Shown: one piece after another, positions 17,973 through 35,906 of the stretch | Numbering within the stretch: position 1 is the first letter of the stretch | Layout: every line of letters starts with the position of its first letter | Made by a program: the position numbers and the translations under genes | NCBI RefSeq assembly: GCF_003058225.1 | Contig: NZ_QBUG01000001.1 | Coordinates: 1,178,001 to 1,242,000 of the forward strand | Direction of reading: 5' to 3' | From: Promicromonospora sp. AC04 | Lineage (GTDB): Bacteria; Actinomycetota; Actinomycetes; Actinomycetales; Cellulomonadaceae | Length of the DNA stretch: 64,000 nucleotides | The notes under the pieces: generated by a model | Told to the model about the DNA's origin: nothing | What the model saw: the letters and a program-made list of their open reading frames with translations, nothing else | The model's database searches: none

Positions 17973-19970
17973 TCAGGCGCGCTGTGTTGCCCAGAGGTCG
18001 TTGAGGTCCTCGTGGATCTCTTCTTCCAGCACAGCCAGCAGGGCATGCTCGAGGGCGTGGTCGCCGGAGACCGCATGGATGAGGTCGTCCTGGACCTGCT
18101 GCTTGCCGGCCAGCACCTGGGGCATCCGTTCGTCCTGCGTGCCCTTGGCGATGAGCCGGTGGATGGTCACGGGCCGGGTCTGGCCCATGCGGTGCAGCCG
18201 GCCGTTGGTCTGCAGGTAGTGCTCGAGCGAGAACGGCAGCGTGTACCAGATCATCGTCGCGCCCCCGTCCTGCAGGTTCAGGCCGTGACCGGCGCTGGCG
18301 GGGTGCAGGAGCATCACAGGGATCTGCTGGGCGTTCCAGCGGCGGACCATGTTCCGCGAGCCGTCGAATGCTCGTGCCTCGATTCCGGCCTTCTCCAGAC
18401 GCGCGAGCAACTGCTCGAGGTCCGAACGGAAGTGGTAGGCGATGAGCACGGGCTCGCCGCCGTTGTTCCGTACGAGGTACTCGACCATCTCGAGCTTCTT
18501 GTCGTGGATGACCTCGTACCGCCCCGCGGTGGAGGGTGCTTCCGGATCTGCCGTGTAGAGGGTGCCCGAGGCGAACTGCATGAGCTTGCTGGTGAGGACG
18601 GCCTGGTTCTCGGCGACGACGGTGCGGACGAGCTCCTGGTCCGGCTCGGTGACGAAGTCCTCGATCTTGCTCTGCCGGAAGTCGTCGTGGGCGGCCTGCC
18701 GCTGGCCGCCGGCGAGTGTGCTCAGGTGCGCCCGGATGGCGGCGGCCTCGGGCTCGGGTGAGCTGTTCAACCAGTGGTCGTAGGCGGCATTGGCCTTGCG
18801 CAGGGCCGCCTCGTTGACGACGTCCAGGACGAGGTTGTGCCGGAAGTCCTTGTAGGCCTGCAGCAGGTCGGGCGGGAGGGTGACGTTGACGTCGTGGATC
18901 GTGAGCGCCGGGAGTTGCAGGTTGGTGTTCTGCGCGCTCATCACTAGATGGGAGATCGCCTGGTAGATCTCCGGCTCGGCGTCCTCGGTTGCGACCCATC
19001 TCGCCGGCGTCCTGGTCCCACGAATCATCTTCGGCACGAACCAGCGGTCGCGGAACGTGTCGATGTCCCGCCCCAAGGCCCGCCCCTGGTCGAGCAGGAA
19101 GACCTGGCTCCACAGGTCGTGCAGACCGTTGGGGCTCGGTGTGCCGGTCAGCTCGACGAGCCGGGTGACTGCAGGGCGGACCTGCGCGAGAGCCTTGAAC
19201 CGGTCGCTCGAGTGCGACTTGAAGCCCTGGGACTCGTCGATGATCACCGTCGGGAACGGCCAGATGATGGTGTCCTGGCCGTCGATCGTCTGGATGGGCA
19301 TCTGGTCGACGAGTCCGAACCGGCACGCGGCGCAGCCGTCTCCGCCGCAGGACCGGCACACGTGGGTGCGACGCGCAATCAGCTTCGCCTTGACAAGCTC
19401 CTGAATCCAGGACTGGACCGTGGACTTCGCGGGCACGTTGCCGCCGGAACCGGTGGCCTCGGCACGGTAGGCGGCGATTAGCTCGTCCTGGCTGAGCGGC
19501 TCTCGTGAGCGGAGCAGGTCGAGCAGACAGATGACGTCCGTGGACACATCTGGGCCCGGCGTCGCGCCGCTGACCGTGCTGAGCAGCCGGGTCGGGTGGG
19601 ACGGTTGGGTGAGCAGCTCCTGGTTGACGAAGTACATGGTCGGCGGGTCGGTGAAGACCTCGCGGAATCTCTCCAGGCGCTTGGCCCGGGACAGCTTCTT
19701 GTCGTTGTCGTCGACGATGAGCGACTTCGTTCTGATCGGGAAGTTCCACTTCTCGATCTCGTCGATCCACGTCGAGCGGGCGATCCCGACCGGCGCGACG
19801 ACCAGGATGTGGCCCAGCGGGCGCAGCGTCTGCAGCACCGCCAGGGTCGTCAGGGTCTTGCCGGCCCCGACACCGAGCCAGGCTCCGGCAAACGGGCGGC
19901 TGATGAGGAAGTCATGGATCTGGCGTTGGTGCGGCTTCAAGCTCACTGCCGGGGCCGGGTTCGTGGTCAT
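17973..19970 (-). CDS. SNF2-type superfamily 2 ATPase with a zinc-cluster insert
   Basis: A 665-residue SF2 protein. Motif I is GVGAGKTLT near residue 35, motif II is VIIDESQGF near 245 (DESQ in place of DEAH). The C-terminal RecA fold shows YHFRSDLEQLL near 510, a GHGLNLQDG motif V near 560 and motif VI in HRMGQTRPVTIHRLIAKGT, the hallmark of SNF2 proteins. A CRSCGGDGCAACRF cluster near residues 203-216 sits in an insert between motifs I and II and should bind zinc. AGGAGG precedes the ATG. It probably remodels protein-DNA complexes during replication or repair of the element, just downstream of the polymerase gene. Confidence 0.85.
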   Translation of the reverse strand: MTTNPAPAVSLKPHQRQIHDFLISRPFAGAWLGVGAGKTLTTLAVLQTLRPLGHILVVAPVGIARSTWIDEIEKWNFPIRTKSLIVDDNDKKLSRAKRLERFREVFTDPPTMYFVNQELLTQPSHPTRLLSTVSGATPGPDVSTDVICLLDLLRSREPLSQDELIAAYRAEATGSGGNVPAKSTVQSWIQELVKAKLIARRTHVCRSCGGDGCAACRFGLVDQMPIQTIDGQDTIIWPFPTVIIDESQGFKSHSSDRFKALAQVRPAVTRLVELTGTPSPNGLHDLWSQVFLLDQGRALGRDIDTFRDRWFVPKMIRGTRTPARWVATEDAEPEIYQAISHLVMSAQNTNLQLPALTIHDVNVTLPPDLLQAYKDFRHNLVLDVVNEAALRKANAAYDHWLNSSPEPEAAAIRAHLSTLAGGQRQAAHDDFRQSKIEDFVTEPDQELVRTVVAENQAVLTSKLMQFASGTLYTADPEAPSTAGRYEVIHDKKLEMVEYLVRNNGGEPVLIAYHFRSDLEQLLARLEKAGIEARAFDGSRNMVRRWNAQQIPVMLLHPASAGHGLNLQDGGATMIWYTLPFSLEHYLQTNGRLHRMGQTRPVTIHRLIAKGTQDERMPQVLAGKQQVQDDLIHAVSGDHALEHALLAVLEEEIHEDLNDLWATQRA

Positions 19971-20411: not shown

Positions 20412-23400
20412 TCAGGTGGCGTTCATCCAGTTCTTGGTGAAGGTCTCGCCGAGCATCCGGGTGTAGACGTCCAGGTCGAGGCTGGTGACGAGCCGGTCGA
20501 CCTGGTCGGGACGAAGCGCTCGCAGGTCGTCGTTGACGACCACGACCGGCCACGCCGGGTCGATGCCGTTGATGCGCCGGACCGCGACGTCCTGGTCGTC
20601 GGGCAGCACCCGTAACCCATCGGTGGCGATGGCCTCGCTGCGGTTCCTCGCCCACCCGTGGTGGCGCAGGATGTCCAGCGCGACCGGGTCGCGGCGCACG
20701 CCGGCGCTGCCGTTCGCGCGGCGCTTGTCCCGGCTGGCCGGGCTCACCTTCCATGCCCCGGCGTTGTGCAGGCTCACGGCCGCGGCGGTCCCGTTGTGGA
20801 CGATGAAGATCCTGTTGACCATCTGCAATGTTCGCGGGTTCGTGAGCTGGGCGTCGCCGTCCGGCTCGGCATCCTGCACGTCATCGGACCCGATGTTGAT
20901 GGGGTCGGCGGCGAACGGGTAGGTGATCGACCCGCGGGACGCGGCGATGACGTTCTGGAACAGCAGGAGCGTCGCCACGGGGCGTGCCAGGTCGATCGCT
21001 TCCTCGATCGTCTTCCGGCCCAGTACCGGGTCGAAGGTCTCGGCCAGGGTCTGTTCGCCTCTGCTGGCGACGGTCTGCAGGTAGCGGGCCAGCGCGAAGT
21101 CGATGACGGCGGGGTGGGCCAGCGACTTCGTCGGGGTAGGACCCGCGTGACAGGCCAGGGTTCCGCCGCCGGCCGCCAGGATCGCGCTGTCGGCGACGCT
21201 CCGTCCCGCGGGCGCGGGCTCCAGCTCGAGGCGGTTGTTGGAGTCCTTGCTGATCAGGAACATCAGCTCGGGTTCGATGTCGATGCCGATCGCGGCCTGA
21301 TGCTCGGCGAGCACCTGGTTGTTGGTCGCCTCGTCGAATCCGTTGCCGCCGTCGACGACGGAGTAGAGGCCATCGGTGTTCGTGGAGATGATCCGTGCGC
21401 CGGCAAGGGTCTGGGCCTGTCCGATGCGCCAGCTGAAGAGCTGGCCGAGGATGCGCATGGAGATGATCTGGTTGTTCATCCTGATCGGGGTCCGGTGCGA
21501 CGCGTCGCCGGCCCCGGAAGCCGCGTTGAGGATGAGCTTCGTGCCCTCACGCAGGGTCTTCAGCCGGGCTCTGTCCTGCGCGGAGGTCCCTGGGGTCTTG
21601 AGCGCCGCGCCCAGACGCTCCTTCTCGAAGAAGATCGTCGCGTAGCGGTCCTCCCCCAGCTCGGGGTTGTAGAAGGCCCGCATGTTGCGCAGCAGGTTCG
21701 GGTAGTAGCTGGTGAAGTCCTCGTGGATGACCAGCCCCGCGGAGGTGCGGGCGTATCTCGGGTGAAGCTTCGTGGACCTGTCGTTCGGGTCCCCCGTCTT
21801 GGTGACGAACAGGTCAGGGGCCTTGCGGACCGGCTCGTCGCGGTACGCGGCCCTGGTCGCCGAGGTGGCGGCCAGGACGACCTTCCCGTCGAGCAGGGTC
21901 TCGTCGGCCAGGCGCACGTGCAAGGCCTCGTTCTCCGGACGCTGGGTGGCGAGCAGCTCGGCGGGATCGGGTACCTGCTCCTGTGCGCGCGCGAGCTGGG
22001 CACCCTGTTCGGGGTCGCTCTTCTTGGGCTTGCGGTACTTGACCTTCTGCGGGTCGGACCCCACGAGCACGAGCCGCTTGTCGACATGGGTGCCGTCGGG
22101 CAGGGTCAGCAGGTTGTGCTGGCGTCGGGCCTCGGCGAGCAGGTCCTTCGGGTCCGGGTAGGCGACCTTGGCCCGTTGGAGCATCGTGTCGGCCTCGAAG
22201 TACGCGATCCGGTCCAGGGTAAAGGCAGACAGGTCGGCCTCGGCGCCATGGATGCCGCCGGTGGAGAAGGTCACGAAGCACGAGGACGGTGTGGCGTCGG
22301 GCCGGAAGTACGGCACGTTGTTCGGTGGCTTCGGCACGTCGCGCAGCGAGTTCGCCGGCAGTGTGAAGAGGTCCTGGTACTCGTCGGAGTCGTTGAAGTT
22401 CTTCCCCTCGATGGAGCGGTAGTAGCGCACCACCTCCATGAACTGGCGGTGCGCGCTGGCCTGCGCTCGGGTCGTTCCTGGGTTCGTGGCGGGGTCGGGT
22501 GCCACGTGTTCCTCGAAGAAGCGCACGCACTCGTCCAGGACGTTGACCTGGGCGATGCCTTGCTGTGCGGCGACCTCCTTGGCCGGGTAGAGGAACGAGA
22601 CGGCCTCGATGTCGTTCAGCGGGGTGTACGGGGCGAGGATGCGGCCGACGAACTTCGCCGAGGACGCGTCGATCGTCAGCCGGTCCCGGCGGATCGTGCC
22701 GTCCTGGGCGTACACCGTCTCGCCGTACTGGGCGATCAGTCCGGCCTTGAGGTCGAAGCTGCTGGCGTAGACGGGGTGGTGGGACAGCTGCGCCAGGCCG
22801 AGGCAGTCGGAGACGTTGTACGCCAACAGCTCGTAGAGCTCCTCGAGGCTTCGGATCGAGGTGTCATGGCTTAGCTTGTCGGACTCCTTGATCTGGCCGC
22901 CGAGCATCCCGAGCAGGCGCTTGAGGCTCACCTTGAACTGTTGCTCGTTGAGGCGGGCGACGTCGAGATGACGGCCCGAGTGCAGCATTGCGCGGCGGAT
23001 CCTTGCGGCGGGGCCGTCCCAGCCGAGGTAGCCCGGCATGTAGTCGTTGTGCTCGGCAAACAGCCGGTCGTTGTGCTCGCGCATCCCGCGCGCCGTGGCC
23101 GGCTGGAACAACCGGTCGCTGTGCGGGGCCGGGAACGCCTCGTGAAGGTAGAGCGCGAGCATGACCGTGTCGTAGTTCATCGAGTTGTACCCGGCCAGGA
23201 ACGGGTGCTTGATCGGGTCGTAGCCGGGGTCCGTGTCGCACACGGGCCGCAGGTACGCGGGGTAGGCGGAGGGGCTGCTGGTGTCGGTGACCTGCTCCGC
23301 GTCGGACAGCCCCACGAGCTCGGCCAGGCGGAGGTTGCCGCGCTCACCGCGCAGGTTCCACAGCTGCACGCTCACCGGGGGCAAGCCGGGGTTGGAACGC

Positions 23401-23603
23401 ACCACCACCTCGTAGAGCGCCTGCGGGTCGACCGCATCGGCGAGCTGTGCGTCGTCAGCGAGGAAGAAGATCTCCAGGCCGTCGACGGCGCTGTCAGGTT
23501 CAGGTGTGTAGGCGCACAGCGTGAAGACGTCGCTCAGCGACTCGATGTCGTAGAAGGTGAAGCGCGCGCTGTCGACCGTGACGGGTGTGTGCTGGCTGGT
23601 CAT
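20412..23603 (-). CDS. Family B DNA polymerase
   Basis: A 1063-residue polymerase, started at ATG 23603 behind AGAAGG. Exonuclease motifs are present: FYDIES (Asp19, Glu21), YNSMNYD near 141 and YNVSD near 261. The polymerase motifs are DFTSYYP (motif A) near 629, KLILNAASG (motif B) near 688 and TNTDGLY (motif C) near 738, where Thr-Asp-Gly replaces the usual DTDS but keeps the second catalytic Asp. It is thus a proofreading replicative or repair enzyme. I see no terminal-protein domain. Together with the PrimPol and the SF3 helicase it gives the element a largely self-contained replisome. Family B polymerases are uncommon on actinobacterial plasmids. Confidence 0.88.
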   Translation of the reverse strand: MTSQHTPVTVDSARFTFYDIESLSDVFTLCAYTPEPDSAVDGLEIFFLADDAQLADAVDPQALYEVVVRSNPGLPPVSVQLWNLRGERGNLRLAELVGLSDAEQVTDTSSPSAYPAYLRPVCDTDPGYDPIKHPFLAGYNSMNYDTVMLALYLHEAFPAPHSDRLFQPATARGMREHNDRLFAEHNDYMPGYLGWDGPAARIRRAMLHSGRHLDVARLNEQQFKVSLKRLLGMLGGQIKESDKLSHDTSIRSLEELYELLAYNVSDCLGLAQLSHHPVYASSFDLKAGLIAQYGETVYAQDGTIRRDRLTIDASSAKFVGRILAPYTPLNDIEAVSFLYPAKEVAAQQGIAQVNVLDECVRFFEEHVAPDPATNPGTTRAQASAHRQFMEVVRYYRSIEGKNFNDSDEYQDLFTLPANSLRDVPKPPNNVPYFRPDATPSSCFVTFSTGGIHGAEADLSAFTLDRIAYFEADTMLQRAKVAYPDPKDLLAEARRQHNLLTLPDGTHVDKRLVLVGSDPQKVKYRKPKKSDPEQGAQLARAQEQVPDPAELLATQRPENEALHVRLADETLLDGKVVLAATSATRAAYRDEPVRKAPDLFVTKTGDPNDRSTKLHPRYARTSAGLVIHEDFTSYYPNLLRNMRAFYNPELGEDRYATIFFEKERLGAALKTPGTSAQDRARLKTLREGTKLILNAASGAGDASHRTPIRMNNQIISMRILGQLFSWRIGQAQTLAGARIISTNTDGLYSVVDGGNGFDEATNNQVLAEHQAAIGIDIEPELMFLISKDSNNRLELEPAPAGRSVADSAILAAGGGTLACHAGPTPTKSLAHPAVIDFALARYLQTVASRGEQTLAETFDPVLGRKTIEEAIDLARPVATLLLFQNVIAASRGSITYPFAADPINIGSDDVQDAEPDGDAQLTNPRTLQMVNRIFIVHNGTAAAVSLHNAGAWKVSPASRDKRRANGSAGVRRDPVALDILRHHGWARNRSEAIATDGLRVLPDDQDVAVRRINGIDPAWPVVVVNDDLRALRPDQVDRLVTSLDLDVYTRMLGETFTKNWMNAT

Positions 23604-23692
23604 CAGGATGCCTTCTCTCGTCGTGCGGTCGTCAACCTCGTCCGCGTTGTCCGGTGTCAAGATCTGGCTCGGAGCGGGTCACGGGGACGAGG

Positions 23693-23907: not shown

Positions 23908-25737
23908 TCACTCCTCGTCCGTGGTGTCGGCCGCCCGCGCGGGCGCGCCGGGGCGGCGCAGCAGTCCGCGGTAGCTGGCCCGCCGGACCGGCTGCGAGAT
24001 CTTGCTCGGGTCCTTGCCCGTGTAGCTCGGGTTCGTCCACTTCTTCAGGTCGTACTCGGCGATCAGCGGCTCAGGGCCGTTCATCATCTGGCCCGGACGG
24101 ATCTTGCGGTTCTTGTCCGGGCAATGCCACAGATCGTCTTTGCGGACGATGGCCACGAGGTCGGCGATGAACTGCTTGTTGCTCACCAAGGTGCCCGACG
24201 GAGAGACGTCGACGAACCAGGACTTGTACAGGTCGTACAGAAAGGTGAACGGCGCCAGATCCCACTCCAGCAGCTCCCGGAACTCCGCCCAGAAGGCGCG
24301 CACCGGGTCGTTGACTTCCTTGTACTCGGCCAGGACGATCTTCGTTGCCGCCGGCTCGGACAGCTCGTAGTAGTTGCCTGGGTCGGCGGCGCCGGCCCGG
24401 TTGAGGACGTACCACAGGACGAACTCGAGGACCTCGCGGCGCTGCAAGTAGTCGTCCTTGATGTACTTGCGCTCGCTGCCGGTGAAGCTCTTGGTGAACG
24501 GCACGAACAGCTGTCGGCGGTAGAAGGTCTCGGACTTGTCCTTCACGCGCGGGAACTCGTTGAGGCACTGCACCATGAAGCCGAAGAACTGGCAGGCAAT
24601 GTGCGTCCGGTGCTTGCGGTTGATCAGGATGACGTCGTTGGTCACGATCGCCTTCAGGTTCGCGGCCTTGTCGATGTAGGTGCCCACGTCGTTCTCGTCG
24701 ACGATGATGGCGTTGGCACGCACCAGCGGTTCCAGGGCGAACTCCTTGCCGAAGTCGCTCAGCGGGATGGAGGTGTGCGACCGGGGTCCGCACAGGTTGC
24801 GCATGAGTGCGCACAGGGTGCCCTTGCCGTTGTTGCCCTCCTCGGAGTAGAACCAGGCTGTCTTGCCCCAGGAGACGTGCGGGCGAATGATCGCGCCGAT
24901 GATCTCCCAGAGCAGTTCGGGCACGCCTTGGTCGTCGGAGAGCTCCTGCATCCAGGACTCGACGTCCCATGCCGTGCCGTCATCCGAGTGGGTGATGACC
25001 GGGCTGGTGGGCGCGTCGCCATAGTCGACGTAGCACTTGGTCAGGAAAACCAGCGCAGGGTCGAACGGGTGCAGAGACTTGGCCTCGAAGTGGAACTCCT
25101 TGCCGGCGATCGTCAGGTCGCGTGCCTGGCGTCCGTAGTAGAAGACCCCGTTGTTCACCGCGATGAGGTCGCGGTGCGCGCACTGGTGGGTGCGCAGACT
25201 GTCCTCACGCAGGACAGCGAGGACTTCGTCGAACTCCTTGAGGGTCAGCTGGGTGTTGTACATCCGTGCCTGGGTCCGGATGTCGTCCTCGCTGGTCGTG
25301 TACGTGCCCCGGGCTGGGCCTGTGTTCTGGTACATCGCGAGCAGGTCGTACTCGCGGTCGGTGTCCTGGCCTCTCGGGGCGATGCGGATGATGTCGTGGA
25401 GACGCAGCAGAACCTGCGCGATCTGCCAGTTGGTCAGGCACCTGACCGGCTTGAGCTTCTCGGGGGCGGTGGTCGCCTTGGCGTTCTCGACCTTGGCCAC
25501 GCCGTTGAGCATCCCCAGCAGCTCTCTCTCCAGGACACGCGGAGGCGGCGGGTCCCTCGGGTCCAGGGCCGCAAGGTAGGCCGTCGTCACCGTGGTGACG
25601 ATCTCGTTCTGCGGCGCCATGTCGCCGTGCGTCGAGAAGTACCCCAGGACCCGTGCGAAGACGTCTGCGGCGGGGCTGGCGTCGCGCGCGACAGGAGAGT
25701 CGGCGAGGGCGGGCGTGCGGGCATCAAGTGTCGTCAT
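23908..25737 (-). CDS. D5/P4-type superfamily 3 helicase
   Basis: A 609-residue protein from ATG 25737 (MTTLDARTPALADSP). It carries the SF3 Walker A SEEGNNGKGT near residue 302 and Walker B NAIIVDEND near 345. VTNDVILINRKHRTHI, containing the sensor/motif C Asn region, comes next, and the later region matches the C-terminus of phage/plasmid primase-helicases of the P4/D5 type. The N-terminal 250 residues lack primase motifs, so priming is presumably done by the separate PrimPol-like protein. It is likely a hexameric 3'-5' DNA helicase acting at the origin. The candidate origin array lies about 1.2 kb upstream, and ATTGNCAATG operators at 25843-25891 sit just before the gene. Confidence 0.8.
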   Translation of the reverse strand: MTTLDARTPALADSPVARDASPAADVFARVLGYFSTHGDMAPQNEIVTTVTTAYLAALDPRDPPPPRVLERELLGMLNGVAKVENAKATTAPEKLKPVRCLTNWQIAQVLLRLHDIIRIAPRGQDTDREYDLLAMYQNTGPARGTYTTSEDDIRTQARMYNTQLTLKEFDEVLAVLREDSLRTHQCAHRDLIAVNNGVFYYGRQARDLTIAGKEFHFEAKSLHPFDPALVFLTKCYVDYGDAPTSPVITHSDDGTAWDVESWMQELSDDQGVPELLWEIIGAIIRPHVSWGKTAWFYSEEGNNGKGTLCALMRNLCGPRSHTSIPLSDFGKEFALEPLVRANAIIVDENDVGTYIDKAANLKAIVTNDVILINRKHRTHIACQFFGFMVQCLNEFPRVKDKSETFYRRQLFVPFTKSFTGSERKYIKDDYLQRREVLEFVLWYVLNRAGAADPGNYYELSEPAATKIVLAEYKEVNDPVRAFWAEFRELLEWDLAPFTFLYDLYKSWFVDVSPSGTLVSNKQFIADLVAIVRKDDLWHCPDKNRKIRPGQMMNGPEPLIAEYDLKKWTNPSYTGKDPSKISQPVRRASYRGLLRRPGAPARAADTTDEE

Positions 25738-25842
25738 GCTGCCGTCTTTCTCGATCGTGTCGAGCACCGCCGGCGAGGTGTGGGAAGCCGACCGAGCCCC
25801 GAATCGAAGGGAACGTGCACGCGACCCTACGCCATTCGAATG

Positions 25843-25891
25843 ATCATTGCCAATGGTGTCGCGGTCGTATGACGCGATCATTGTCAATGAT
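25843..25891 (-). promoter_or_regulatory. Two ATCATT-N3-AATGAT operators upstream of the helicase
   Basis: ATCATT-GCC-AATGGT (25843-25857) and the perfect dyad ATCATT-GTC-AATGAT (25877-25891) lie 34 bases apart, about 106 bases before the helicase start. Related cores occur at 27510-27519, 31230-31239 and 34051-34060. The spacing of about three helical turns puts both on one face of the DNA, as expected for cooperative repressor binding. The 307 bases from 25738 to 26044 hold nothing else I can support. Confidence 0.6.
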
Positions 25892-26044: not shown

Positions 26045-26584
26045 TCAGGCCGGTGTCGTCACGGTTCCGGCAGCGTTCTCAGCGGCGACCTCTGCACCGT
26101 AGATGGCCTCCGGCTCGCCGTCCTGGACGGCTTTCTCGTAGGCGTCCTTGGTGGGGTACGAGTAGATACTGCCGGCGTACTCGACCAGCACAGGCTTGTC
26201 GTGCTCCTCGTCGTAGAACGACTTGAGCTCGGCGAGCGTGACCATGCGGCCGCTGGCGAGGATGGTGTAGGAGCTCTCGTCGGTCCAGCGGTCACAGACC
26301 GGCCCGGGCAGGTCGAACGCAAGGTATGCGTCATGACCGACCAGTTGGACGAGCTCGTTGTCGATGCTCGCGAGCTTGTCGTGGTTCTTGGACAGCATGG
26401 CCATGGTCGCTACCCGGCGAGCGAGTGCGGCCTGAGCCTTGACGGCACGACGCTCGGACTCCTTGGCTTCGGCCACCTCGAGTGCTCGACGTGCACGCTC
26501 GACGCGTGAGATGCGCGGTTTCCGTCTGGCCGGCGCCTCGACGGCTCCTTCAGGTGCAGTGGTGACGATCGTCTTGCTGGTCAC
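26045..26584 (-). CDS. Hypothetical coiled-coil protein, 179 aa
   Basis: It starts at GTG 26584 (VTSKTIVTTAPEGAVEAPAR) behind GGAAGGA. A basic Ala/Arg-rich helical stretch of residues about 20-60 (RVERARRALEVAEAKESERR) should form a coiled coil. A compact C-terminal domain follows (YTILASGRMVTLAELKSFY, YAGSIYSYPTKDAYEKAV). No family is recognised. It is the first gene of the left-hand minus-strand block, directly beside the GTACCACG repeat region, so it may be an origin- or centromere-binding protein. That is inference only. Confidence 0.55.
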   Translation of the reverse strand: MTSKTIVTTAPEGAVEAPARRKPRISRVERARRALEVAEAKESERRAVKAQAALARRVATMAMLSKNHDKLASIDNELVQLVGHDAYLAFDLPGPVCDRWTDESSYTILASGRMVTLAELKSFYDEEHDKPVLVEYAGSIYSYPTKDAYEKAVQDGEPEAIYGAEVAAENAAGTVTTPA

Positions 26585-26891
26585 TGGAGCGGGTCCTTCC
26601 GTCACTCGTGGTGGTGTGGCAGGTCGTACTGACAAAAATGGCGCACCTGATTGCCGGCGCGACGAACGGATCCTCGGGTCGACGATGCTTGCAGGCTGCG
26701 CAGGCGGGTGTGGCCTGCTTCCGACTGCCGATGTTCCTGGTCGTCAACGAGGCTCAGACCACGCGGGCGGCGGCAGCCGGCCGGGTCCTGGTCGATGTTC
26801 GCGGGATTCTTCGGCCCTGCAGGCACATCGGCATTCGCGGCGAAGCGTCGCCGGCCCCGGAGTACGCCTGCGGATCCAGGGTCGTTCGAAG

Positions 26892-27301
26892 GGTGTACCA
26901 CGTGGCGTGGTACGAGCCTTACCCCAGGTCGGAGCAGCGATTGCGACCGGCGGCGGACGCGATGTGCCACGCGGGATTTAGCACGTGGTACACCCGTCTG
27001 CGCTGGTCAGCCAGGGGTTATAGACCCCTGTACCACTTGTACCAGGAATTAGGACCAAAATATGGAGGCAGGAAGCGACAGAGCATCTCTCAGATGCGGC
27101 CAACCCCTGCGGGCGTCCTAGGCAATCTTTCGAGTATTCGTGGTACTCGTGCCACATCGAGGAAATGCCGTGGCCAGCCAGGCACGATGCCGTACCACGG
27201 CTGTGTGTCCACGTGGTACCCGGCTATGGAGAAGCCTGCCGGGACCGGCTGTTTTCACAGGTCAGAGGCCAGTCCGCGACATGTACCACGCTGCGTGGTA
27301 C
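26892..27301. repeat. GTACCACG/CGTGGTAC inverted-repeat array: candidate oriV or centromere
   Basis: Four dyads built from GTACCACG and CGTGGTAC lie in a non-coding kilobase. Those at 26895-26913 and 27283-27301 have 3-base spacers. Those at 26964-26991 (one mismatch) and 27192-27219 have 12-base spacers, so the order is N3, N12, N12, N3. Half-sites sit at 27030-27043 (TGTACCA twice) and 27139-27155, and a CAGGGGT/ACCCCTG hairpin at 27012-27030. GGGTGTACCACGTG (26892-26905) is repeated inverted at 26982-26995. The middle (about 27015-27070) is less GC-rich. Replication genes start just to the left. The rest of 26585-27659 holds an ATTGCCCATG site (27510-27519) and a terminator, but no gene. 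Confidence 0.6.
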
Positions 27302-27506
27302 GCCTTGCCGAGGGAACTCGCTGACTGCAAGGGGACAGCGGGCTGATCGGTCACCGTTTGCCCTCAGGGCCGGCCTGCCCTGTTGGCGGTGGGCTCTGAC
27401 GAGCCCTTCGGGTGCACGCCCCGAGAGAACAGCTCCGGGCGCCGGAAGAGTGGATACACGAGGCGCGAGTCAGCGCCGGATTTTGATGAGTATCGAGGGC
27501 TGGCTG

Positions 27507-27521
27507 ATCATTGCCCATGGT
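27507..27521. promoter_or_regulatory. ATCATTGCCCATGGT operator-like site
   Basis: It differs by one base from the site at 25843-25857. It lies in non-coding DNA between the candidate origin and the terminator at 27599-27637, with no gene start nearby. It may be an auxiliary repressor or nucleoid-protein site. Confidence 0.4.
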
Positions 27522-27598
27522 GGTTGGCGATTGATATTCTCGAGGTTGGGTAATGCGGCTGTCGTCGCCGTTGTTGCACTGGAACGTGAAGACAGAAG

Positions 27599-27637
27599 GG
27601 CCGGAGGGCAACCCTGTGGGAAGGGAGCCCTCCGGCC
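27599..27637 (-). terminator. Terminator of the gene at 27660-28073
   Basis: GGCCGGAGGGC (27599-27609) pairs with GCCCTCCGGCC (27627-27637) in an 11-bp stem, with TTT on the plus side and CCCTTCTGTC on the minus side. It lies 22 bases past the minus-strand stop at 27660. Confidence 0.75.
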
Positions 27638-27659
27638 TTTCTGCACGCGCCGAGCAGTG

Positions 27660-28073
27660 TCACACGTAAACTGCAGCGTCCCGATCTCGCTGATAGTGCC
27701 CGTGAGGTGCTGCGGGACGTGGGCCGCGAGACCATTCCGGCCCCTCGACCGCATACAGGATCTCGTAGTTGATCGTGGTGTTGCGGTTGAGCGGGTTCTC
27801 ACCGGCAGTCCTGCATGTCCCGATTTTGCGGAAGCCATGGACGGCACCGGCGCGCTCGAAGAAGCGGTGCAGCTTCTCTCGGACGCGCTCTCGCGCGTGG
27901 TCCGGCGTGACGCCGCTGGCGGACACGACGAAGACGTGGGTGTAGCCGCTGTCGAAGGTGGGCAGCCCGCCAAGGTCGAGATCGAGGCCAATCTTCGCGC
28001 GGCCAATATCGAGCGGGTCGGGAGGGATGAGCCGGCCTCGCGCGTCGTACGCGCAGGCGCTGACGGCTGCCAT
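27660..28073 (-). CDS. Hypothetical protein, 137 aa
   Basis: It starts MAAVSACAYDARGRLIPPDP at 28073 behind GAGAGGAG. Internal beta segments (TFDSGYTHVFVVSASG, TTINYEILYAVEGP) and a basic central helix (HARERVREKLHRFFERAGAV) suggest a small alpha/beta fold. No family is recognised. It stands between two terminators, so it is probably monocistronic. Confidence 0.55.
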   Translation of the reverse strand: MAAVSACAYDARGRLIPPDPLDIGRAKIGLDLDLGGLPTFDSGYTHVFVVSASGVTPDHARERVREKLHRFFERAGAVHGFRKIGTCRTAGENPLNRNTTINYEILYAVEGPEWSRGPRPAAPHGHYQRDRDAAVYV

Positions 28074-28137
28074 GATGGGCTCCTCTCCCTTGTCGAGCAT
28101 GGCACCTGAGTGGATGACTCCAATCAGCCACAACCCC

Positions 28138-28160
28138 GGTGACCGGGTCGCCCGGTCACC
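28138..28160 (-). terminator. Terminator downstream of the CPBP gene
   Basis: GGTGACCGGG and CCCGGTCACC form a 10-bp stem with a TCG loop. It lies between the CPBP stop at 28374 and the next minus-strand start at 28073. The 300-base gap holds nothing else I can support. Confidence 0.6.
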
Positions 28161-28373
28161 CGTGCAGCAGGTCTGCCAGGAGGAGCCGTTCTGCAGAAGC
28201 GGTGCGACGGTCGACGGTGATGCTATGGAAAGGTGCCGCCTCAGCACGGTGGCATCCTCCTGACGCACCACGTGCCGTTCCCTGCGAAAGACCGAGCCCT
28301 GCGCGTGGTTCGCCACGGTCCCCGGCGGACAGCGGAACGTGAGGACGGTCGCCGTGGGCCACGGCGCCCGCCG

Positions 28374-29189: not shown

Positions 29190-29208
29190 GGGCTCCTCCT
29201 CCAGGGGC

Positions 29209-31053
29209 TTATGCGGGTGCGCTGAGCTGGTCGATGATCACGGCCTGGACGCGGGTGTCGCCTCGGAACGTGTTCAGCTGCAGCGTTGCCGTGAACCGCA
29301 TCGTGCCGAGCTCGGTGCGGCTCGCACGCCGCACGAGGTCCTGGAGCGCGCCGTGCTTGTCCTGGGCGGCGTTCCACCACAAGCAGGACAGGCCAGACCG
29401 GGTGACCAGCCGAAGATGCTGCGCTTCGGATCCGATCCGGTCGATGCGCAGACCGAGGGGCTCGATCGCGAGCTGCACGACCGGAGCGGTGAAACTGTGG
29501 CCGAAGGGCTTGAGGGTCTCGGTCCGGCGCACGAGCTCGAACAGGGGCGTGAGGTCGTCGATGCCTGCGTCGCAGTCTGCGTCCGGGCCGAGCACGAGGT
29601 CGCCCTGTGGGGCATCGGGGTCGACGGCGAGCAGAGCGACCCGGGTTGCCTCGGCCAGGATCTCGGCCAGGTCGCCGAGCTTGTCGGCGCTGGACACGCG
29701 CACGCCGCACGCTTGCTGGTGGCCGATCCCGCTGAGCCCGTCGTGGGGCTCGAGGCTGGCGATGATATCGAACCAGCCGGGTGCGCGACCCGAACCACTG
29801 ACGAAGTCCTTGGCCGCGTTCGGGCGGTCGACGACGATGACCGGGTGTCCGGCGTCCTGCATCAGTTGGTTGGCCAGCAGCCCGTACATGCCTTTCGGGG
29901 CATCCGAGAAGTAGACCCATGGCGCCAGCGGTTGGTCGCCGTGCGTGAGCGCTTCGAGGTGCTTGGCCGTCAGCTGCTTGCGGCGCTCGTTGCCACGGAT
30001 CACCCGGTGCGCCGCGGCGAGCTTCTCGTCGGGCGCGGCGGCGGTGAACACCGCGAAACAGTCCTCGAGCGGGTCACCGGTGCGCCGAGGGCTGTTCATC
30101 GCCGGTGCCAGGTAGAAGCCGTAGAAGCCCTCGTCGATGCTGTCGAGGTCGCGGATCTTGCCGGTCTGCGTGAAGGCCTTGAGCATGAGCGCAAAACCCT
30201 CGAACGCATCCAGGAAGGCCGGGTGGTGGGACTCGGTGCGCAGCAGCTGCATCATCGTCGAGTTCTCGATGTCGATCAGGTGCGGCTCGGCGTCCCCGTA
30301 CGCGCCGTTCGGCCTCGGCGGTGAGACCCACAGGAGCCGGGCGATCGAGAGCGAGTCGCGGACCAGCTGACGGTTCTCGTAGAGGATCGGCATGACGTCG
30401 GAGACGGTACCCAGGCCGGCGAACAGACGCAGCAGGTGGATCGCCCACAGCTTCTCAGGTCGATACTTGCGGGCGTAGGCCTCGAGGACTTGGTACAGCA
30501 CGTACGCTCCGCAGATGCCCGGGTGAGCGTAGCTCTCGTCCATCCGGCAGGGGTCGACGGTGACGTCCGCGGCGGACCCCGGCGCGAGCTCCTCGTGGTG
30601 ATCGGTCACCAGCGTGGTCCAGCCCAGTGCCCGCGCTGCGGCGATCCCGCGGTGGGAGTTCACTCCCCCGTCACAGGTCAGCAGGACCCGGGTCTCGGGC
30701 CACGCCTGATGGATCTCGTCAATGTCCTCGGGCGTGAGGTCGTGCCCGCGGCGGTAGTCAGGCACGTGCAGTTCGACATCGAGGCCGAGCTCGGACAGGC
30801 CCGCGAGACCGAGAACCCCAGAAGCGATGCCATCCATGTCGAAGTCGGGCGCGATGGTGACCTTCTCGCCCGACGTCCGAGCAGCGTGCAACGCTTCGAC
30901 CATCTCGGACAGACCCAGGAGCACGTCATGCTCGGTGGACTCGATCGCGGTGAGATGGGCCTCCGTCCAGCCCCGACGCTGGCACAGCAGAGCAAAGAGA
31001 TCGGCCTGACCGACGCTGAGGTGAGAGTCGTCAACGGTCTGGAGCGTGGACAT
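29209..31053 (-). CDS. DHH-family phosphoesterase, RecJ-like
   Basis: A 614-residue protein from ATG 31053 (MSTLQTVDDSHLSVGQADLF), behind GAGAGG. The DHH motifs are clear: DFDMDGIAS near residue 72, CDGG near 126 and VTDHHEE near 150. The C-terminal half has the DHHA1-type region with SGSGRAPGWFD and GIGHQQACGVRV. The organisation matches RecJ single-strand 5'-3' exonucleases. It presumably serves recombination, repair or lagging-strand processing on the element. The gene diverges from lsr2 across a 202-base AT-richer promoter region. Confidence 0.85.
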   Translation of the reverse strand: MSTLQTVDDSHLSVGQADLFALLCQRRGWTEAHLTAIESTEHDVLLGLSEMVEALHAARTSGEKVTIAPDFDMDGIASGVLGLAGLSELGLDVELHVPDYRRGHDLTPEDIDEIHQAWPETRVLLTCDGGVNSHRGIAAARALGWTTLVTDHHEELAPGSAADVTVDPCRMDESYAHPGICGAYVLYQVLEAYARKYRPEKLWAIHLLRLFAGLGTVSDVMPILYENRQLVRDSLSIARLLWVSPPRPNGAYGDAEPHLIDIENSTMMQLLRTESHHPAFLDAFEGFALMLKAFTQTGKIRDLDSIDEGFYGFYLAPAMNSPRRTGDPLEDCFAVFTAAAPDEKLAAAHRVIRGNERRKQLTAKHLEALTHGDQPLAPWVYFSDAPKGMYGLLANQLMQDAGHPVIVVDRPNAAKDFVSGSGRAPGWFDIIASLEPHDGLSGIGHQQACGVRVSSADKLGDLAEILAEATRVALLAVDPDAPQGDLVLGPDADCDAGIDDLTPLFELVRRTETLKPFGHSFTAPVVQLAIEPLGLRIDRIGSEAQHLRLVTRSGLSCLWWNAAQDKHGALQDLVRRASRTELGTMRFTATLQLNTFRGDTRVQAVIIDQLSAPA

Positions 31054-31188
31054 GGCGATGGCCTCTCGATCGGGTCGACGGATGCGGGGCGCGGAACGAC
31101 ACCACACCGGATGGTGCGATTCTAGCAACCACGATCGCTAGAACTGTGAATTCCACAACATCTAGGGATGTGATTCCCACCCCTTTGT

Positions 31189-32280: not shown

Positions 32281-33141
32281 TCGGAGCTCCTCTCGGTGGA
32301 CGTCACGCTCGAAAGCGGACCGGGCACAAGTGCGTACGGCCGTGCACCCGGGCCAGCTCCGCTGGCCGACCATCCCGGGGTGGGCGGTCAGCACTTCAGC
32401 GTGGGCCTGGGCAGGCTCCAGCGTTGGCGTCCTGGTGTGAGCGGCGCGGCTTCCACCGTTGCGAAGCAAGGCGCCTTCTGCGCTGGATCGCCACTTGGGG
32501 CATCGGCACGCGCCCACTCCTGAGCCCGGCGCGCAGCGCCGCGCGATCCACCGCGCCCGCCTTCCTTGTCGCGGCCGGCCAGGCCTATGCAGGCTGCGGC
32601 GCACAGCGGGGGGGTGTTCGACTCGAGCGAAGCGCTGGGCATGGCCGAGGGAGCGCCAGCGAGCGAGGAACCGGCGAGCGAAGCGAGCGGTGGAACCTGT
32701 CGGCTATGCCGACTAACACGTCCTCGCAGCGCAGCGGAGAGGCCGAGCGGAGCGAGGGTCCGCAGGACGCGTGTTATCAGGTTCCCTTATGCCCTTTGCT
32801 TCCTCTCTCCACTGCATCGCGTCCGGAGCCTTGGCGGAGGACCGATGCGGCCTTCATCAGGGGAAACGGTCCGTACCTCCTTGACCCGTACCTCTGCCAT
32901 ATTTCCGCGCAGCGGGGTACGGGTCCGGACGTTTCGCCTGGTCATCGCACCTTCTGGGTGTACCGCACTCTTGACGACCGTGATACGCCCGTACAGGTCT
33001 CGCGGATGCCGGGCGCAGCCCGGTTCATGACCGCGTGGTCACGACAAGCTGCCGCAGGCGCCCCGGCGACCGAACTTTGCCGCTCGGAGCCATCGCAACG
33101 AGGACGACGCGGGGCAGCGGCGGCCGTCCCTCCCTCCGCGG
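32281..33141. other. Non-coding region rich in inverted repeats: candidate res, oriT or ssi site
   Basis: These 861 bases hold no supported gene. Four structures stand out. GGATCGC (32485-32491) and GCGATCC (32543-32549) form one pair. About 32604-32760 holds direct repeats of GAGCG/AAGCGAGC type. TAACACG-TCCT (from 32714) pairs with AGGAC-GCGTGTTA (to 32776). GACCCGTACC (32883-32892) is the exact complement of GGTACGGGTC (32916-32925), and CCGTACCTC is duplicated at 32871 and 32886. The serine recombinase fragment starts just to the right, so a recombination site is one reading; a single-strand initiation site or oriT are others. Confidence 0.45.
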
Positions 33142-33546: not shown

Positions 33547-34101
33547 GAAGATGAGTATGGACGAGCACCTCACGTCCCGAGAGAGCAAGCCCGTGTCCCG
33601 AACCGATGCGGCGCCACCATCGCACCAGGATCCCTCGCGCGTGCCCGGAGTGGCCCTGCGCATCTCCTTGACGTCTCGCGCGAGTCTCCACGATGTGCCG
33701 TCCGGGCCGCAGCCAAGGCGTGTCAACGTCGAGCGCGAGCCTCTACCCGGTCCTGCCGGCGCACTGATGCGTGCAGCGACTTCGGAAGGGACGCGGCAAG
33801 GACACCTTGGGGCGTCGCGGACGGCTGGCGATGTGACCCTGCTCGGCCATGTCGCAACTTCGGTTGGCCCCTCGGCGTCCCGTTGATGGCTCTGGTGCGA
33901 CACCCCAGTGGTACCTCAGCGCTCCCCCGCGCGGATGGGGCACCGAGGCGTCTTCCCGACGTCCTGCCTGCCACCCGGCACGTATGTCAATGAGCCTCGT
34001 TGGTGTACTGTGCACGTATGACATAGGCACGGACCGTCTATACGCTCTCGATTGGCAATGGCCCGTGTTGCAAGGTGCACATGAAGGAGAGGTGACTCCG
34101 T
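33547..34101. other. Region upstream of the partition operon: possible parC and promoter
   Basis: No gene is supported in these 555 bases. Near the right end GCACGTATG occurs twice, at 33978-33986 and 34012-34020, 34 bases apart. The second copy overlaps the TATGACATAGGC box, and ATTGGCAATG follows at 34051-34060. Centromeres of actin-type partition systems are usually repeat clusters just upstream of the operon, so this is the natural parC candidate. Confidence 0.45.
34017..34028 (+). promoter_or_regulatory. TATGACATAGGC box of the partition operon
   Basis: Identical over 12 bases to the minus-strand box at 8724-8735, and placed the same 74 bases before the first start codon (34102). ATTGGCAATG at 34051-34060, a member of the operator family, lies between box and start. 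Confidence 0.5.
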
Positions 34102-34170
34102 ATGGCAGCACACATCGTGTTGATGGCACGGCCGGACGGGCGTCGACGGCACGCTCGGGGGCCCTGGTGA
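34102..34170 (+). CDS. 22-residue leader ORF coupled to the ParR-like gene
   Basis: ATG at 34102 follows AAGGAGAGG, the only strong ribosome site in the area, and encodes MAAHIVLMARPDGRRRHARG plus PW before TGA. The TGA overlaps the GTG start of the ParR-like gene (GTGA at 34167-34170). It is arginine-rich and probably acts as a translational coupler or attenuator. A 22-residue leader ending in the same TGG-TGA occurs at 43246-43314. Confidence 0.45.
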   Translation: MAAHIVLMARPDGRRRHARGPW

Positions 34171-34535
34171 GCACGGCCGCGAAGCAGCAGGGTGGGCCCC
34201 GCAAGGTCCGCTGGACCGTGCCCGCCGTCGACACCTCCGTGATCGCCTGGCTCGACGCCCAGGAGAACATCTCGCAGTCGGTACGACTGCTCATCCGGGA
34301 GGCCATCCAGCGCGACGGGTACATCGACGTCGTCTACAAGCCGGTCGAACAGCTACCCCGCCGCGACCGGTCGCAGGACGCGGGGCCGGTCGACGCGCGG
34401 CCCGTGGGCGACCCGGTTCCAGACCGGCCGGAGCAGCACGAGGAGCCGGCATCCGCGCCGGCCGGCGTATCCAAGGAGCCTGCACCTCCGGTGCAGGTGT
34501 CCGTCGACGAGATCATGGCCAGTACCCGGCGGTAG
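34167..34535 (+). CDS. ParR-like DNA-binding partition adaptor
   Basis: From GTG 34167 the product has 122 residues. Residues about 14-55 (KVRWTVPAVDTSVIAWLDAQ, SQSVRLLIREAIQRDGYID) fit a ribbon-helix-helix of the kind found in ParR/StbB adaptors of actin-like partition systems. The rest is an acidic, Pro-rich linker ending in VQVSVDEIMAS, a plausible filament-contacting tail. It lies 69 bases before the ParM-like gene. The start is set by coupling to the leader ORF; another in-frame GTG at 34092 is too close to the ribosome site. Confidence 0.65.
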   Translation: MSTAAKQQGGPRKVRWTVPAVDTSVIAWLDAQENISQSVRLLIREAIQRDGYIDVVYKPVEQLPRRDRSQDAGPVDARPVGDPVPDRPEQHEEPASAPAGVSKEPAPPVQVSVDEIMASTRR

Positions 34536-34604: not shown

Positions 34605-35906
34605 ATGAGCAGCAGCGGCAACGACATCATCACGCTCACCGGCGGCATCGACGTCGGCAACGGCTACGTCAAGGGCGTCATCCAGAACACGAAGACCGCC
34701 GTGTTCGACGAGATCGACCTGCCCAGCGCAGTGGTCTCGACGTCACGCACCTCACCGAAGGTGCCCCTTGCCGACAGCGAAGCGTTCGCCGTGGTCACTG
34801 GCGACTTCTACAACCAGCTCGACTGCTCGCTCAGCACCCCGCTCGTGGCGGCTGCGGACCGACGCATCTTCGGCCGAGCTGCGCTGTCGGTCCGCGGCTC
34901 GAAGTTCACCGAGTTCGAGGTGATCGGCAAGCACTCCAAGGCCGACCAGGAGCTGTCAAAGGTGCTCGTGCTCGGCGTGTTCGCCGGCAAGGCGCTGCGT
35001 GATCACGTCACCACGCACGGCGCGCTGCCGGACCACGAGCTGCGCGTGCAGGTGCGCGCGGGACTCGCCCTGCCGATCTCCGAGTACGTCGCGCGGCGCC
35101 ATGCCTACGCCGCGGAGTTCACCGGCGCTCAGGGTGGCACGGACCGCACGGTGCACCTGGTGACGATCAAGAACTTCAGCACCCCGGTCTCGGTGCGCCT
35201 GGAGTTCATCGACGTGCAGGTGATGGCCGAGGGCGCCTCGGCGCAGTTCGCCATCACGGACAAGGGTGAGCTCCTGGCCCAGGCGCTCCTGCAGGACCTG
35301 CGAACTCGCGACGCCTCGCTCGTCGAGGGCGTCACGGCGGCCGACCTGGTCGCGGTCAAGAACACCATCGGCGTGGACGTGGGCGAAGGCACGGTGAACT
35401 TCCCCGTCTTCACCGGCGGGCGGTTCAACCCGGAAGCCGCAGCCACGCTCGAGGAGGGGTACGGAACAGCGCTGATGAACGCCATGGAGCGCATGAACGA
35501 GTCGGACTCCACCCTGCAGTTCTCCTCACGCAAGCAGCTGGCGGACTTCCTGCACGCGAGCCCGTCGGTGCTCCAGAGGTCGCGCCACGACCGCGCAGCA
35601 GGCTTCGTCGAGATCGAGGCCGGCTACCTGGTCGACGAGATCGTCTCCGCACTCGGCGACGTCCTCTCGCAGGCCGGTGCGACGACCGAGGTCGTCTACG
35701 TCTACGGCGGCGGCTCGGGCCCGATCAAGGACCTGCTGCACCCCGCTCTGCTCAAGGCATCCGGTGACGTGCCCGTGCTGTATCTGGACTCGAGCTACTC
35801 ACGCCACCTGAACCGTGAGGGCCTCTACATCGCGGCTCGCCACGTCGAGCAGAGCGCGCAGACGGCGCGCGCCGAGCAGACGAGGGAGCAGGCCACGGTG
35901 TGGTGA
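34605..35906 (+). CDS. parM: ParM/StbA-like actin-family ATPase
   Basis: A 433-residue actin-fold protein. Phosphate-1 is GGIDVGNGYVKG (residues 13-24), phosphate-2 is IGVDVGEGTVNFPVF near 255, and the adenosine loop is VYVYGGGSGPIKDL near 367. These are the ParM/StbA/Alp signatures. It should polymerise into filaments that push plasmid copies apart, using the adjacent ParR-like adaptor. AGGGG lies a few bases upstream of the ATG. Actinobacterial plasmids more often use ParA Walker ATPases, so an actin-type system is noteworthy here. Confidence 0.8.
   Translation: MSSSGNDIITLTGGIDVGNGYVKGVIQNTKTAVFDEIDLPSAVVSTSRTSPKVPLADSEAFAVVTGDFYNQLDCSLSTPLVAAADRRIFGRAALSVRGSKFTEFEVIGKHSKADQELSKVLVLGVFAGKALRDHVTTHGALPDHELRVQVRAGLALPISEYVARRHAYAAEFTGAQGGTDRTVHLVTIKNFSTPVSVRLEFIDVQVMAEGASAQFAITDKGELLAQALLQDLRTRDASLVEGVTAADLVAVKNTIGVDVGEGTVNFPVFTGGRFNPEAAATLEEGYGTALMNAMERMNESDSTLQFSSRKQLADFLHASPSVLQRSRHDRAAGFVEIEAGYLVDEIVSALGDVLSQAGATTEVVYVYGGGSGPIKDLLHPALLKASGDVPVLYLDSSYSRHLNREGLYIAARHVEQSAQTARAEQTREQATVW

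What the first reader, a model, noticed from the sequence alone, without database searches (positions are those of the whole stretch)
26892..27301. Symmetric GTACCACG inverted-repeat array in a gene-free kilobase next to the replication genes
Four dyads of GTACCACG and CGTGGTAC occur in the order 3-base, 12-base, 12-base, 3-base spacer, with half-sites and a 7-bp hairpin in the middle. Such symmetry is not expected by chance and looks like an origin (iterons for an initiator or an SF3 helicase) or a centromere. No recognisable Rep initiator is encoded nearby, so the binding protein may be new; the coiled-coil protein at 26045-26584 is a candidate.
Basis: partly seen in the sequence, partly recalled or inferred. 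Interest (0 to 1): 0.75.

Follow-up and report, generated by a model that had tools for sequence, protein, structure and literature searches.

The report
Symmetric origin-like array beside replication helicase
A 407-base, mirror-symmetric set of protein-binding-type repeats sits next to the helicase gene of a large mobile DNA element and recurs, with much the same geometry, in relatives of that element; it is most likely where the element starts copying itself, and a small plasmid living beside one such element carries a copy too.

Summary
The array is real and non-random: 8 exact GTACCACG sites, all within 407 bp. Its plan is 12 half-sites in two inverted six-site blocks (dyad N3, dyad N12, tandem pair) about a centre of variable length. 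Eight of 16 copies keep all twelve GTACCA cores.

It lies ~450 bp upstream of the same D5/SF3 helicase gene in 14 of 14 Streptomyces elements compared. One is a circular 639-kb plasmid; another lies on the sequence published as PAISt. In 392 Streptomyces genomes, the 9 with a true array are the 9 with this D5. A distant relative, L057, keeps the half-site core and the 22-bp dyad offset. L059 keeps a similar plan with another half-site.

Best reading: an iteron-type origin recognised by D5. The proposed coiled-coil binder has no match in the 14 relatives. A centromere is unlikely: 11-bp repeats lie upstream of parR.

Against: GC skew of the 639-kb plasmid does not turn at the array, and two of four distant D5 loci lack a recognisable array.

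Most unusual: a 45.6-kb plasmid without D5 carries the array plus a second conserved noncoding element, in a strain whose chromosome holds the D5 element.

The parts
26895..27301 (.). Array A: mirror-symmetric array on a 12-half-site plan (10 GTACCA cores intact in this copy), proposed origin of replication
26895..26913 (.). outer left dyad, GTACCACG-N3-CGTGGTAC
26924..26932 (+). motif 2 copy (CCAGGTCGG; consensus CCWGGTCAG)
26964..26991 (.). inner left dyad, GTGCCACG-N12-CGTGGTAC (one mismatch)
27002..27010 (+). motif 2 copy (GCTGGTCAG)
27030..27046 (+). left tandem half-site pair, 9-bp step (GTACCACTTGTACCAGG)
27047..27138 (.). centre between the two blocks; more AT near the inner edges, GC-rich middle; length varies among copies
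27139..27155 (-). right tandem half-site pair (CGTGGTAC T CGTGCCAC, second half degenerate here)
27174..27182 (-). motif 2, inverted and degenerate here (CCAGCCAGG; CTGACCAGG or close to it in relatives)
27192..27219 (.). inner right dyad, N12, exact
27258..27265 (+). motif 2 copy (CAGGTCAG)
27283..27301 (.). outer right dyad, N3, exact
23908..25887 (-). D5/P4-type SF3 helicase-primase gene, proposed initiator; homology to relatives begins near residue 42, so the true start is probably downstream of the listed one
20412..23660 (-). DNA polymerase (phrog_1252), conserved with the array
17973..19970 (-). SNF2-type helicase, conserved with the array
27660..28316 (-). small conserved protein on the other side of the array (14 of 14 relatives)
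29209..31128 (-). RecJ-like DHH exonuclease of the conserved module
32640..33010 (+). Region B: second conserved noncoding element with a strong predicted fold (strand not decided)
33849..34535 (+). ParR-like gene (real start probably near 34165)
34605..35906 (+). ParM-like actin ATPase, 83.6-85.3% identical in 13 relatives
33560..34165 (+). probable parC: weak 11-bp periodicity, stronger in Streptomyces relatives

Best explanation
Array A is the origin of replication of a large integrative element (the kind to which PAISt of Streptomyces turgidiscabies belongs), recognised by the D5-family helicase encoded next to it. Shown: the array, its geometry, its conservation and its linkage to D5. Inferred: D5 (its C-terminal Pox_D5-type domain is the natural DNA-binding part) binds the dyads and tandem half-sites of each block. 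The two blocks are inverted relative to each other, so two helicase rings would be placed head to head over the centre. They open DNA near the inner edges and start replication with the element's own polymerase, RecJ and SNF2 helicase, after excision or in a plasmid state. The second motif (CCWGGTCAG) probably binds another factor whose specificity changes more slowly, since it is kept where the half-site has changed. Partition is done separately by ParM/ParR and a site upstream of parR.
For: D5 starts ~450 bp from the array in 14 of 14 other elements (NBC_01454). Spacing is nearly fixed in 16 copies while the centre varies; 8 of 16 keep all twelve GTACCA cores, 6 keep eleven, 2 keep ten. Half-site columns are 97.9% conserved against 85.7% for the rest inside the array (the sites were picked on the consensus, so this is partly circular). 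In 392 Streptomyces genomes the 9 with a true array are the 9 with this D5 at E<=1e-60 (4 of the 9 were known). L057 (D5 51-54%, GC 0.43) has 13 GTACCA sites at 7082-7810, upstream of D5, with three dyads at the same 22-bp offset; 1 of 2000 random placements gave three dyads at any one offset. L059 (D5 57-59%) has a similar plan with half-site TGTCGCG, inner tandem pairs with a 9-bp step, and motif 2 three times forward then three times reverse, one of them with a mismatch. The module encodes a replisome: D5 related to a solved DNA primase, a polymerase, RecJ, SNF2 helicase; the window also has a topoisomerase. The same kind of element is recorded as a circular 639-kb plasmid.
Against: Cumulative GC skew of the 639-kb plasmid has its detrended minimum near 194 kb and maximum near 537 kb; the array at 5.5-5.9 kb is mid-slope, and p3's extremes are not at its array either. 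Two of four distant D5 loci, pGKT2 of Gordonia (49%) and the L058 paralogue, show no recognisable array. L059 does not show every dyad of the plan: on its left side two sites point the same way. p3 carries the array without D5. The centre is not uniformly AT-rich. Linkage on one element explains co-occurrence without proving binding. There are no binding or replication data, and the D5 structure model was poor.
Confidence: 0.7

Rival explanations
1. The array is an operator: a regulator binds it to control the D5 promoter (and perhaps the opposite gene), with no direct role in initiation.
For: It lies in the intergenic region upstream of D5 in 14 of 14 relatives, and many initiators also repress their own gene (general knowledge).
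Against: A 10-12 half-site mirror-symmetric array over ~400-430 bp with a variable-length centre is more than operators usually need. p3 has the array without D5, followed by region B instead of a D5-type operon.
Confidence: 0.13
2. The array is the centromere of the element's actin-type (ParM/ParR) partition system.
For: ParM is highly conserved (83.6-85.3%) and the array is made of binding-site-like repeats.
Against: A different repeat set (11-bp period) lies directly upstream of parR in 7 of 7 elements examined; the array shows no such peak in the two copies tested (the motif counted there was chosen after looking). The array is about 7-12 kb from parR but near D5. L057 and L059 have arrays of this kind, while no ParM/ParR match was found in their fetched 17.6 kb (only those stretches were examined).
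Confidence: 0.06
3. The array is a transfer, recombination or decoy site: p3 picked it up to be mobilised by, to recombine with, or to titrate the co-resident element, and its role in the element is not replication.
For: p3 carries array and region B side by side on a backbone shared with MobF plasmids that did not appear in the searches for either. Region B alone is on another MobF-type contig.
Against: The fixed position near D5, and a similar plan with a switched half-site near D5 in L059, fit an initiator site better. In NBC_01454 the annotated relaxase MobL is ~76 kb from the array.
Confidence: 0.08

Closest known systems
Origins of phage-inducible chromosomal islands (SaPI/PICI, pri-rep-ori)
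   Same: Initiator is a primase/helicase-type Rep next to the origin; two sets of iterons flank a central melting region (PMC6092414, passages seen). The window D5 matches a solved 'DNA primase', 7ola, at 2.4e-39 (that 7ola is the SaPI5 Rep is recalled).
   Different: Array lies 5' of the gene, not 3'; half-sites are arranged as two dyads plus a tandem pair per side; the centre is not uniformly AT-rich; the host element is a large integrative element with its own polymerase and ParM/ParR.
P4 alpha protein with ori1/crr
   Same: D5-type helicase recognising short repeats in both orientations, with a second cis region kilobases away (recalled; P4 alpha and its cognate ori site are named in PMC6092414).
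   Different: Region B, about 5.3 kb away in the window, holds no exact GTACCACG there (two one-mismatch sites). In one search, 15 of 17 B excerpts had no GTACCAC core, G824 had one, and the two in p3's excerpt lie in the adjoining array. So B is not a crr in the P4 sense.
PAISt and related bacA-site ICEs of Streptomyces
   Same: The Car8 array (G541) lies on NZ_AEJB01000361.1, the accession given for PAISt.
   Different: By find in the held main texts, PMC4057263 and PMC10711302 have no occurrence of primase, partition or ParM, and the former introduces ICEs as lacking self-replication. Whether the array lies inside the published island borders was not mapped here.
SXT/R391 ICEs with srpMRC
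   Same: An ICE family with replication of its circular form and an actin-type partition system (PMC4489591, abstract and outline).
   Different: There replication is attributed to oriT/TraI; here a dedicated D5-linked origin is proposed.
SGI1 with its helper IncC plasmids
   Same: Iteron origin on a mobile island, with replication tied to a co-resident element (PMC7433901, abstract and passages).
   Different: SGI1 encodes its own Rep; p3 encodes no D5.

Membership tests
Iteron-type origin of replication | repeated sites next to the gene of a candidate initiator | tested here: met
   repeats conserved and ~450 bp from D5 in 14 of 14 relatives
Iteron-type origin of replication | the repeats are bound by that initiator | not testable with these tools
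   needs gel shift or footprint
Iteron-type origin of replication | supports autonomous replication in cis | not testable with these tools
   needs a minireplicon assay
Iteron-type origin of replication | GC-skew turning point at the site in a complete replicon | tested here: not met
   extremes at ~194 and ~537 kb, array at 5.5 kb of 639 kb; the plasmid has many annotated transposases, so weight is limited
Iteron-type origin of replication | AT-rich unwinding region | tested here: inconclusive
   30-bp windows reach 50-57% AT near the inner edges (as high elsewhere in G824), the middle falls to 23-30% (three copies)
PICI/SaPI-type ori | two iteron sets flanking an AT-rich core | tested here: inconclusive
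   two mirrored sets yes; uniformly AT-rich core no
PICI/SaPI-type ori | element is a phage-inducible satellite | not tested
   induction and packaging genes were not examined; size, ParM/ParR and, in NBC_01454, an annotated T4SS-type gene and relaxase speak for another kind
D5/P4-type SF3 helicase (protein 23908-25887) | profile match over the helicase domain | tested here: met
   DUF5906 58.5 bits over cut-off 27.6, Pox_D5 24.1 over 21.4; phrog_864 2.6e-64
ParMRC centromere | direct repeats upstream of parR | tested here: not met
   array A is not there; another 11-bp repeat set is
PAISt-type ICE | shared module on the published PAISt sequence | tested here: met
   same array and 13 window genes with matches in 60 kb of NZ_AEJB01000361.1 (accession)
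PAISt-type ICE | integration at TTCATGAA in bacA | tested here: inconclusive
   TTCATGAA occurs 3 times in the stretches of contig C1 examined; boundaries were not mapped

The most novel reading that the evidence does not exclude
The array is a modular origin code. Its geometry (two inverted blocks of dyad-dyad-tandem pair, plus motif 2) is kept, while the half-site 'password' is swapped between lineages together with the D5 initiator. Plasmid p3 has taken the password and the second cis element, and is replicated by, controlled by, or interferes with, the D5 element in the chromosome of the same cell: a plasmid hitchhiker or decoy of an integrated element.
Probability: 0.3. Interest if true: 0.82.

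Novelty: new variant of a known kind. Interest (0 to 1): 0.62.

Why it matters
[quoted passage not shown] A conserved origin-initiator-polymerase-partition module would mean that such elements can also live as plasmids, as the 639-kb circular record in NBC_01454 suggests, which changes how their stability and incompatibility should be thought of. The conserved geometry, with a changed half-site in a relative, offers a natural system for asking how SF3/D5 helicases recognise and open an origin. The p3 plasmid makes origin piracy between elements in one cell directly testable.

Tried and rejected
Centromere reading: disfavoured by the parR-upstream repeats. Coiled-coil protein 26045-26635 as binder: rejected, no match in the fetched stretches of 14 relatives. 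A phage origin: no similar DNA in the phage collection for the array or for region B. An Rfam RNA: none over its gathering score in 25800-34700. GC skew as locator of the origin: negative. A structure of D5: the AlphaFold model from 4 sequences had mean pLDDT 47.6 and was not used. More distant D5 relatives: a profile scan of viral contigs returned the same three places; a phylum draw of 396 genomes at E<=1e-60 returned only the window's own. A 17-mer from the central tandem pair gave 30 viral stretches, judged too unspecific and not followed. A p3-specific match to its co-resident element: p3's array is 83.7% identical to that of the same strain but 86.2% to two others, so special descent is not shown, although both copies of region B share a deletion. 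A Rep gene of p3: none recognised in its gene table or among the p3 proteins scanned against profile libraries (ten per call, of 52 annotated), and none by name in the relatives' tables, so p3's own replicon remains unknown. In one search, 15 of the 24 genomes were dropped from the count of true arrays because they have no second dyad in the same locus; the backward control pattern also matched singly in dozens of genomes, so single dyads carry no weight.

Full report
1. Observation. The eight exact GTACCACG/CGTGGTAC sites of the 64-kb window all fall in 26895-27301; dinucleotide shuffles average 1.68 for the whole window (largest 7) and none of 100 reaches 8. In 100 Markov sequences of the same length no 410-bp span held more than 2. 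With one mismatch allowed three more half-sites join (26964, 27030, 27039), and a degenerate twelfth lies at 27148-27155. The order is dyad N3, dyad N12, tandem pair (9-bp step), centre of 92 bp, tandem pair, dyad N12, dyad N3. The hairpin in the centre has 6-bp arms and is absent from the 15 other copies, so it is probably incidental.

2. Where the window lies. It is 1178001-1242000 of contig C1 (1,282,267 bp) of a 6.85-Mb draft genome. C1 carries tRNA genes at 513-867 kb and a tmRNA near 902 kb, while dnaA is on C3. In the stretches sampled, GC content is lower from about 1.105-1.115 Mb to the contig end. The element is therefore joined to chromosomal sequence in this assembly; its borders were not mapped.

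3. Relatives. A distant blastn of the region in plasmids gave two Streptomyces records. The array itself was found in NBC_01304 plasmid unnamed3 (p3, 45,582 bp, NZ_CP109058.1) and NBC_01454 plasmid unnamed1 (639,479 bp, NZ_CP109461.1), aligned. A second conserved noncoding stretch, region B (window ~32640-33010), is shared by the same two records. A 19-mer of region B gave 9 loci in genome contigs, all Streptomyces, and 8 of those 9 genomes have array dyads. A scan of 392 Streptomyces genomes with the dyad pattern gave 24 with at least one match. Nine have two or more dyads in one locus: G538-G541, G567, G633, G671, G824, G830. The other 15 were dropped as single dyads (one has two matches, on different contigs); the backward control pattern matched singly in dozens of genomes. 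In 149 genomes drawn as relatives of the host, only the host itself had the pattern.

4. Gene context. Flanks of 13 chromosomal or contig copies were fetched and compared with the window; NBC_01454 makes 14. SNF2 helicase, polymerase, D5, the small protein 27660-28316, CAAX protease, RecJ, Lsr2 and SLOG have counterparts in 14 of 14. ParR and ParM have them in 13 of 14; NBC_01454 has an annotated ParM outside the stretch then searched. The array lies between D5 and the 27660-type gene; in Car8 and NBC_01454 extra DNA separates it from the latter. The product of 26045-26635 has no counterpart in the fetched stretches of the 14. Of 16 copies (14 relatives, p3 and the window), 8 keep all twelve GTACCA cores, 6 keep eleven and 2, the window among them, keep ten. 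Spacing within blocks is nearly fixed and the centre varies. In the commonest form half-sites at 1, 14, 70, 92, 137, 146 mirror those at 425, 412, 341, 319, 277, 268 about axes that agree within about 8 bp.

5. Proteins. 23908-25887 matches DUF5906 (1.2e-15) and Pox_D5 (5e-5), phrog_864 DNA primase (2.6e-64) and PDB 7ola (2.4e-39). 20412-23660 matches a PHROG DNA polymerase (1e-23) and no PDB sequence convincingly. The window also has a topoisomerase gene (51604-54015) and an actin-like ParM (below the Pfam cut-offs; phrog_691 3.4e-18).

6. Co-occurrence. The D5 protein searched in the same 392 Streptomyces genomes hit 9 at E<=1e-60, exactly the 9 with true arrays; 383 have neither. Four of the nine were known beforehand through region B, and array and D5 are linked on one element, so this is consistency rather than independent proof.

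7. Distant relatives. Three D5 places were found in viral contigs (the same three), and one more in plasmid pGKT2. L057 has thirteen GTACCA sites at 7082-7810, upstream of D5. Three of its dyads have the 22-bp offset of the window's N12 dyads; 1 in 2000 random placements gave three dyads at any single offset. L059 lacks GTACCA upstream of D5 but shows a similar plan with TGTCGCG half-sites. Nine of its ten exact sites fall in 520 bp (Markov maximum 5 in 100). The inner tandem pairs have a 9-bp step (7369/7378 forward, 7451/7460 reverse), with dyads on both sides; but the second left pair (7293, 7325) points one way, so the plan is not complete. Motif 2 appears three times forward and then three times reverse, one with a mismatch; thirteen further copies with at most one mismatch are scattered over the locus, while of six exact CTGGTCAG five fall in 520 bp (Markov maximum 2). 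L058, a paralogue on the L057 contig, and pGKT2 have no recognisable array. So 2 of the 4 distant D5 loci support the link and 2 do not.

8. Centromere test. Upstream of parR, 7 of 7 elements examined (of 13 available) have repeats: 8-17 motif hits against Markov means near 2 and maxima 6-7; the motif was chosen after seeing the sequences. The autocorrelation peak is at 11 bp in six; in the seventh, G824, 22 bp is first and 11 bp second. The window peaks at 11 and 22 bp, weakly. The two array copies tested show no such peak. This points to a separate parC.

9. Origin test by skew. The 639-kb plasmid has skew extremes at ~194 and ~537 kb; the array at 5.5 kb is mid-slope. This counts against a simple fixed bidirectional origin there. 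The plasmid has many annotated transposases and may be a recent mosaic, so I lower confidence but do not drop the reading.

10. p3. G824 contig 4, bases 25001-27000, is identical to p3, so G824 is NBC_01304. Its 10.66-Mb chromosome carries an element with D5 at 9.2567-9.2586 Mb beside an array; the only other D5 match in the genome is weak (8.8e-5) and also chromosomal. p3 has array and region B side by side. The D5 search of the whole p3 record found nothing. 47 p3 proteins (those complete in bases 5962-45582) had no match in the window's element as fetched or in 80 kb of the co-resident element, and two weak ones in other elements (an HTH protein in G544, 30%; a DUF6884 protein in G567, 40% over 100 residues). 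The p3 backbone (MobF relaxase, TraM-type protein, several small genes) is shared with five MobF plasmids, none of which appeared in the searches for array or B. Array+B thus look like an acquired cassette. A draft contig of ISL-66 has a p3-type backbone and region B (up to 95% identical to elements) but no array, and no D5 match was found in its genome. Whether p3 uses, competes with, or merely carries the site is open.

11. Region B. Sixteen of 17 copies (p3 left out of the fold) give a consensus fold of -149 on one strand and -135 on the other. Column-shuffled alignments average -106 and -97 (10 shuffles each); 20 of 129 and 15 of 119 pairs have changes on both sides, but the covariation term is small (-1.3, -2.3) and the copies are related. 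It is a conserved, probably structured element; strand and function are undecided, and no Rfam family matches.

12. Known work. The Car8 array lies on NZ_AEJB01000361.1, named as PAISt in PMC4057263 (passages seen). PMC10711302 (passages) describes related ICEs; by find its main text has no primase, partition or ParM. PICI origins have two iteron sets flanking an AT-rich region (PMC6092414, passages). ICEs with actin-type partition are known (PMC4489591, abstract and outline). In the listings of my searches I saw no paper describing this array; only the top 8-10 papers of each were listed, and most subscription papers are missing from the library. PMC9513070 (one passage) mentions ParM next to short TraB genes in Streptomyces, apparently a different system.

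13. Verdict. A conserved, origin-like, D5-linked array: a new variant of the known kind 'iteron origin with a self-encoded helicase initiator', with two features worth a specialist's time, the switched half-site on a similar plan and the copy on a co-resident plasmid.

Noticed in passing
window 32640-33010: Region B, a ~370-450 bp conserved noncoding, probably structured element, also on p3 and on an ISL-66 plasmid-like contig that lacks the array; possibly an RNA, single-strand origin or transfer site.
   Followed up: partly
L129 25106-26582 (p3): Array and region B sit together upstream of an HTH gene and a zeta-toxin-family gene on p3; five related MobF plasmids did not appear in the searches for either element.
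   Followed up: partly
window 33560-34165 and relatives: 11-bp-periodic repeats upstream of parR, likely the centromere of the ParM/ParR system.
   Followed up: partly
window 33142-33903: A serine resolvase gene lies between region B and parR in the window; no counterpart was found in the fetched stretches of the 14 Streptomyces relatives.
   Followed up: no
window 49678-50943: Abi_2 family gene (7.5e-52), a likely abortive-infection defence gene.
   Followed up: no
L057 and L058 (contig IMGVR_UViG_3300021431_004083): One 251-kb contig carries two D5 genes of this family; only one has the GTACCA array upstream.
   Followed up: no
L006 193-3952 and L166 1-4030: In the 639-kb plasmid Tn7-like gene sets (TnsA-type, transposase/integrase, ATPase) sit next to the array-D5 locus and near region B.
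   Followed up: no
G541 235921-241484: In Car8 the array is separated from the 27660-type gene by about 5.5 kb, against about 0.4-0.55 kb in 12 of the other 13 elements; NBC_01454 also has extra DNA there.
   Followed up: no
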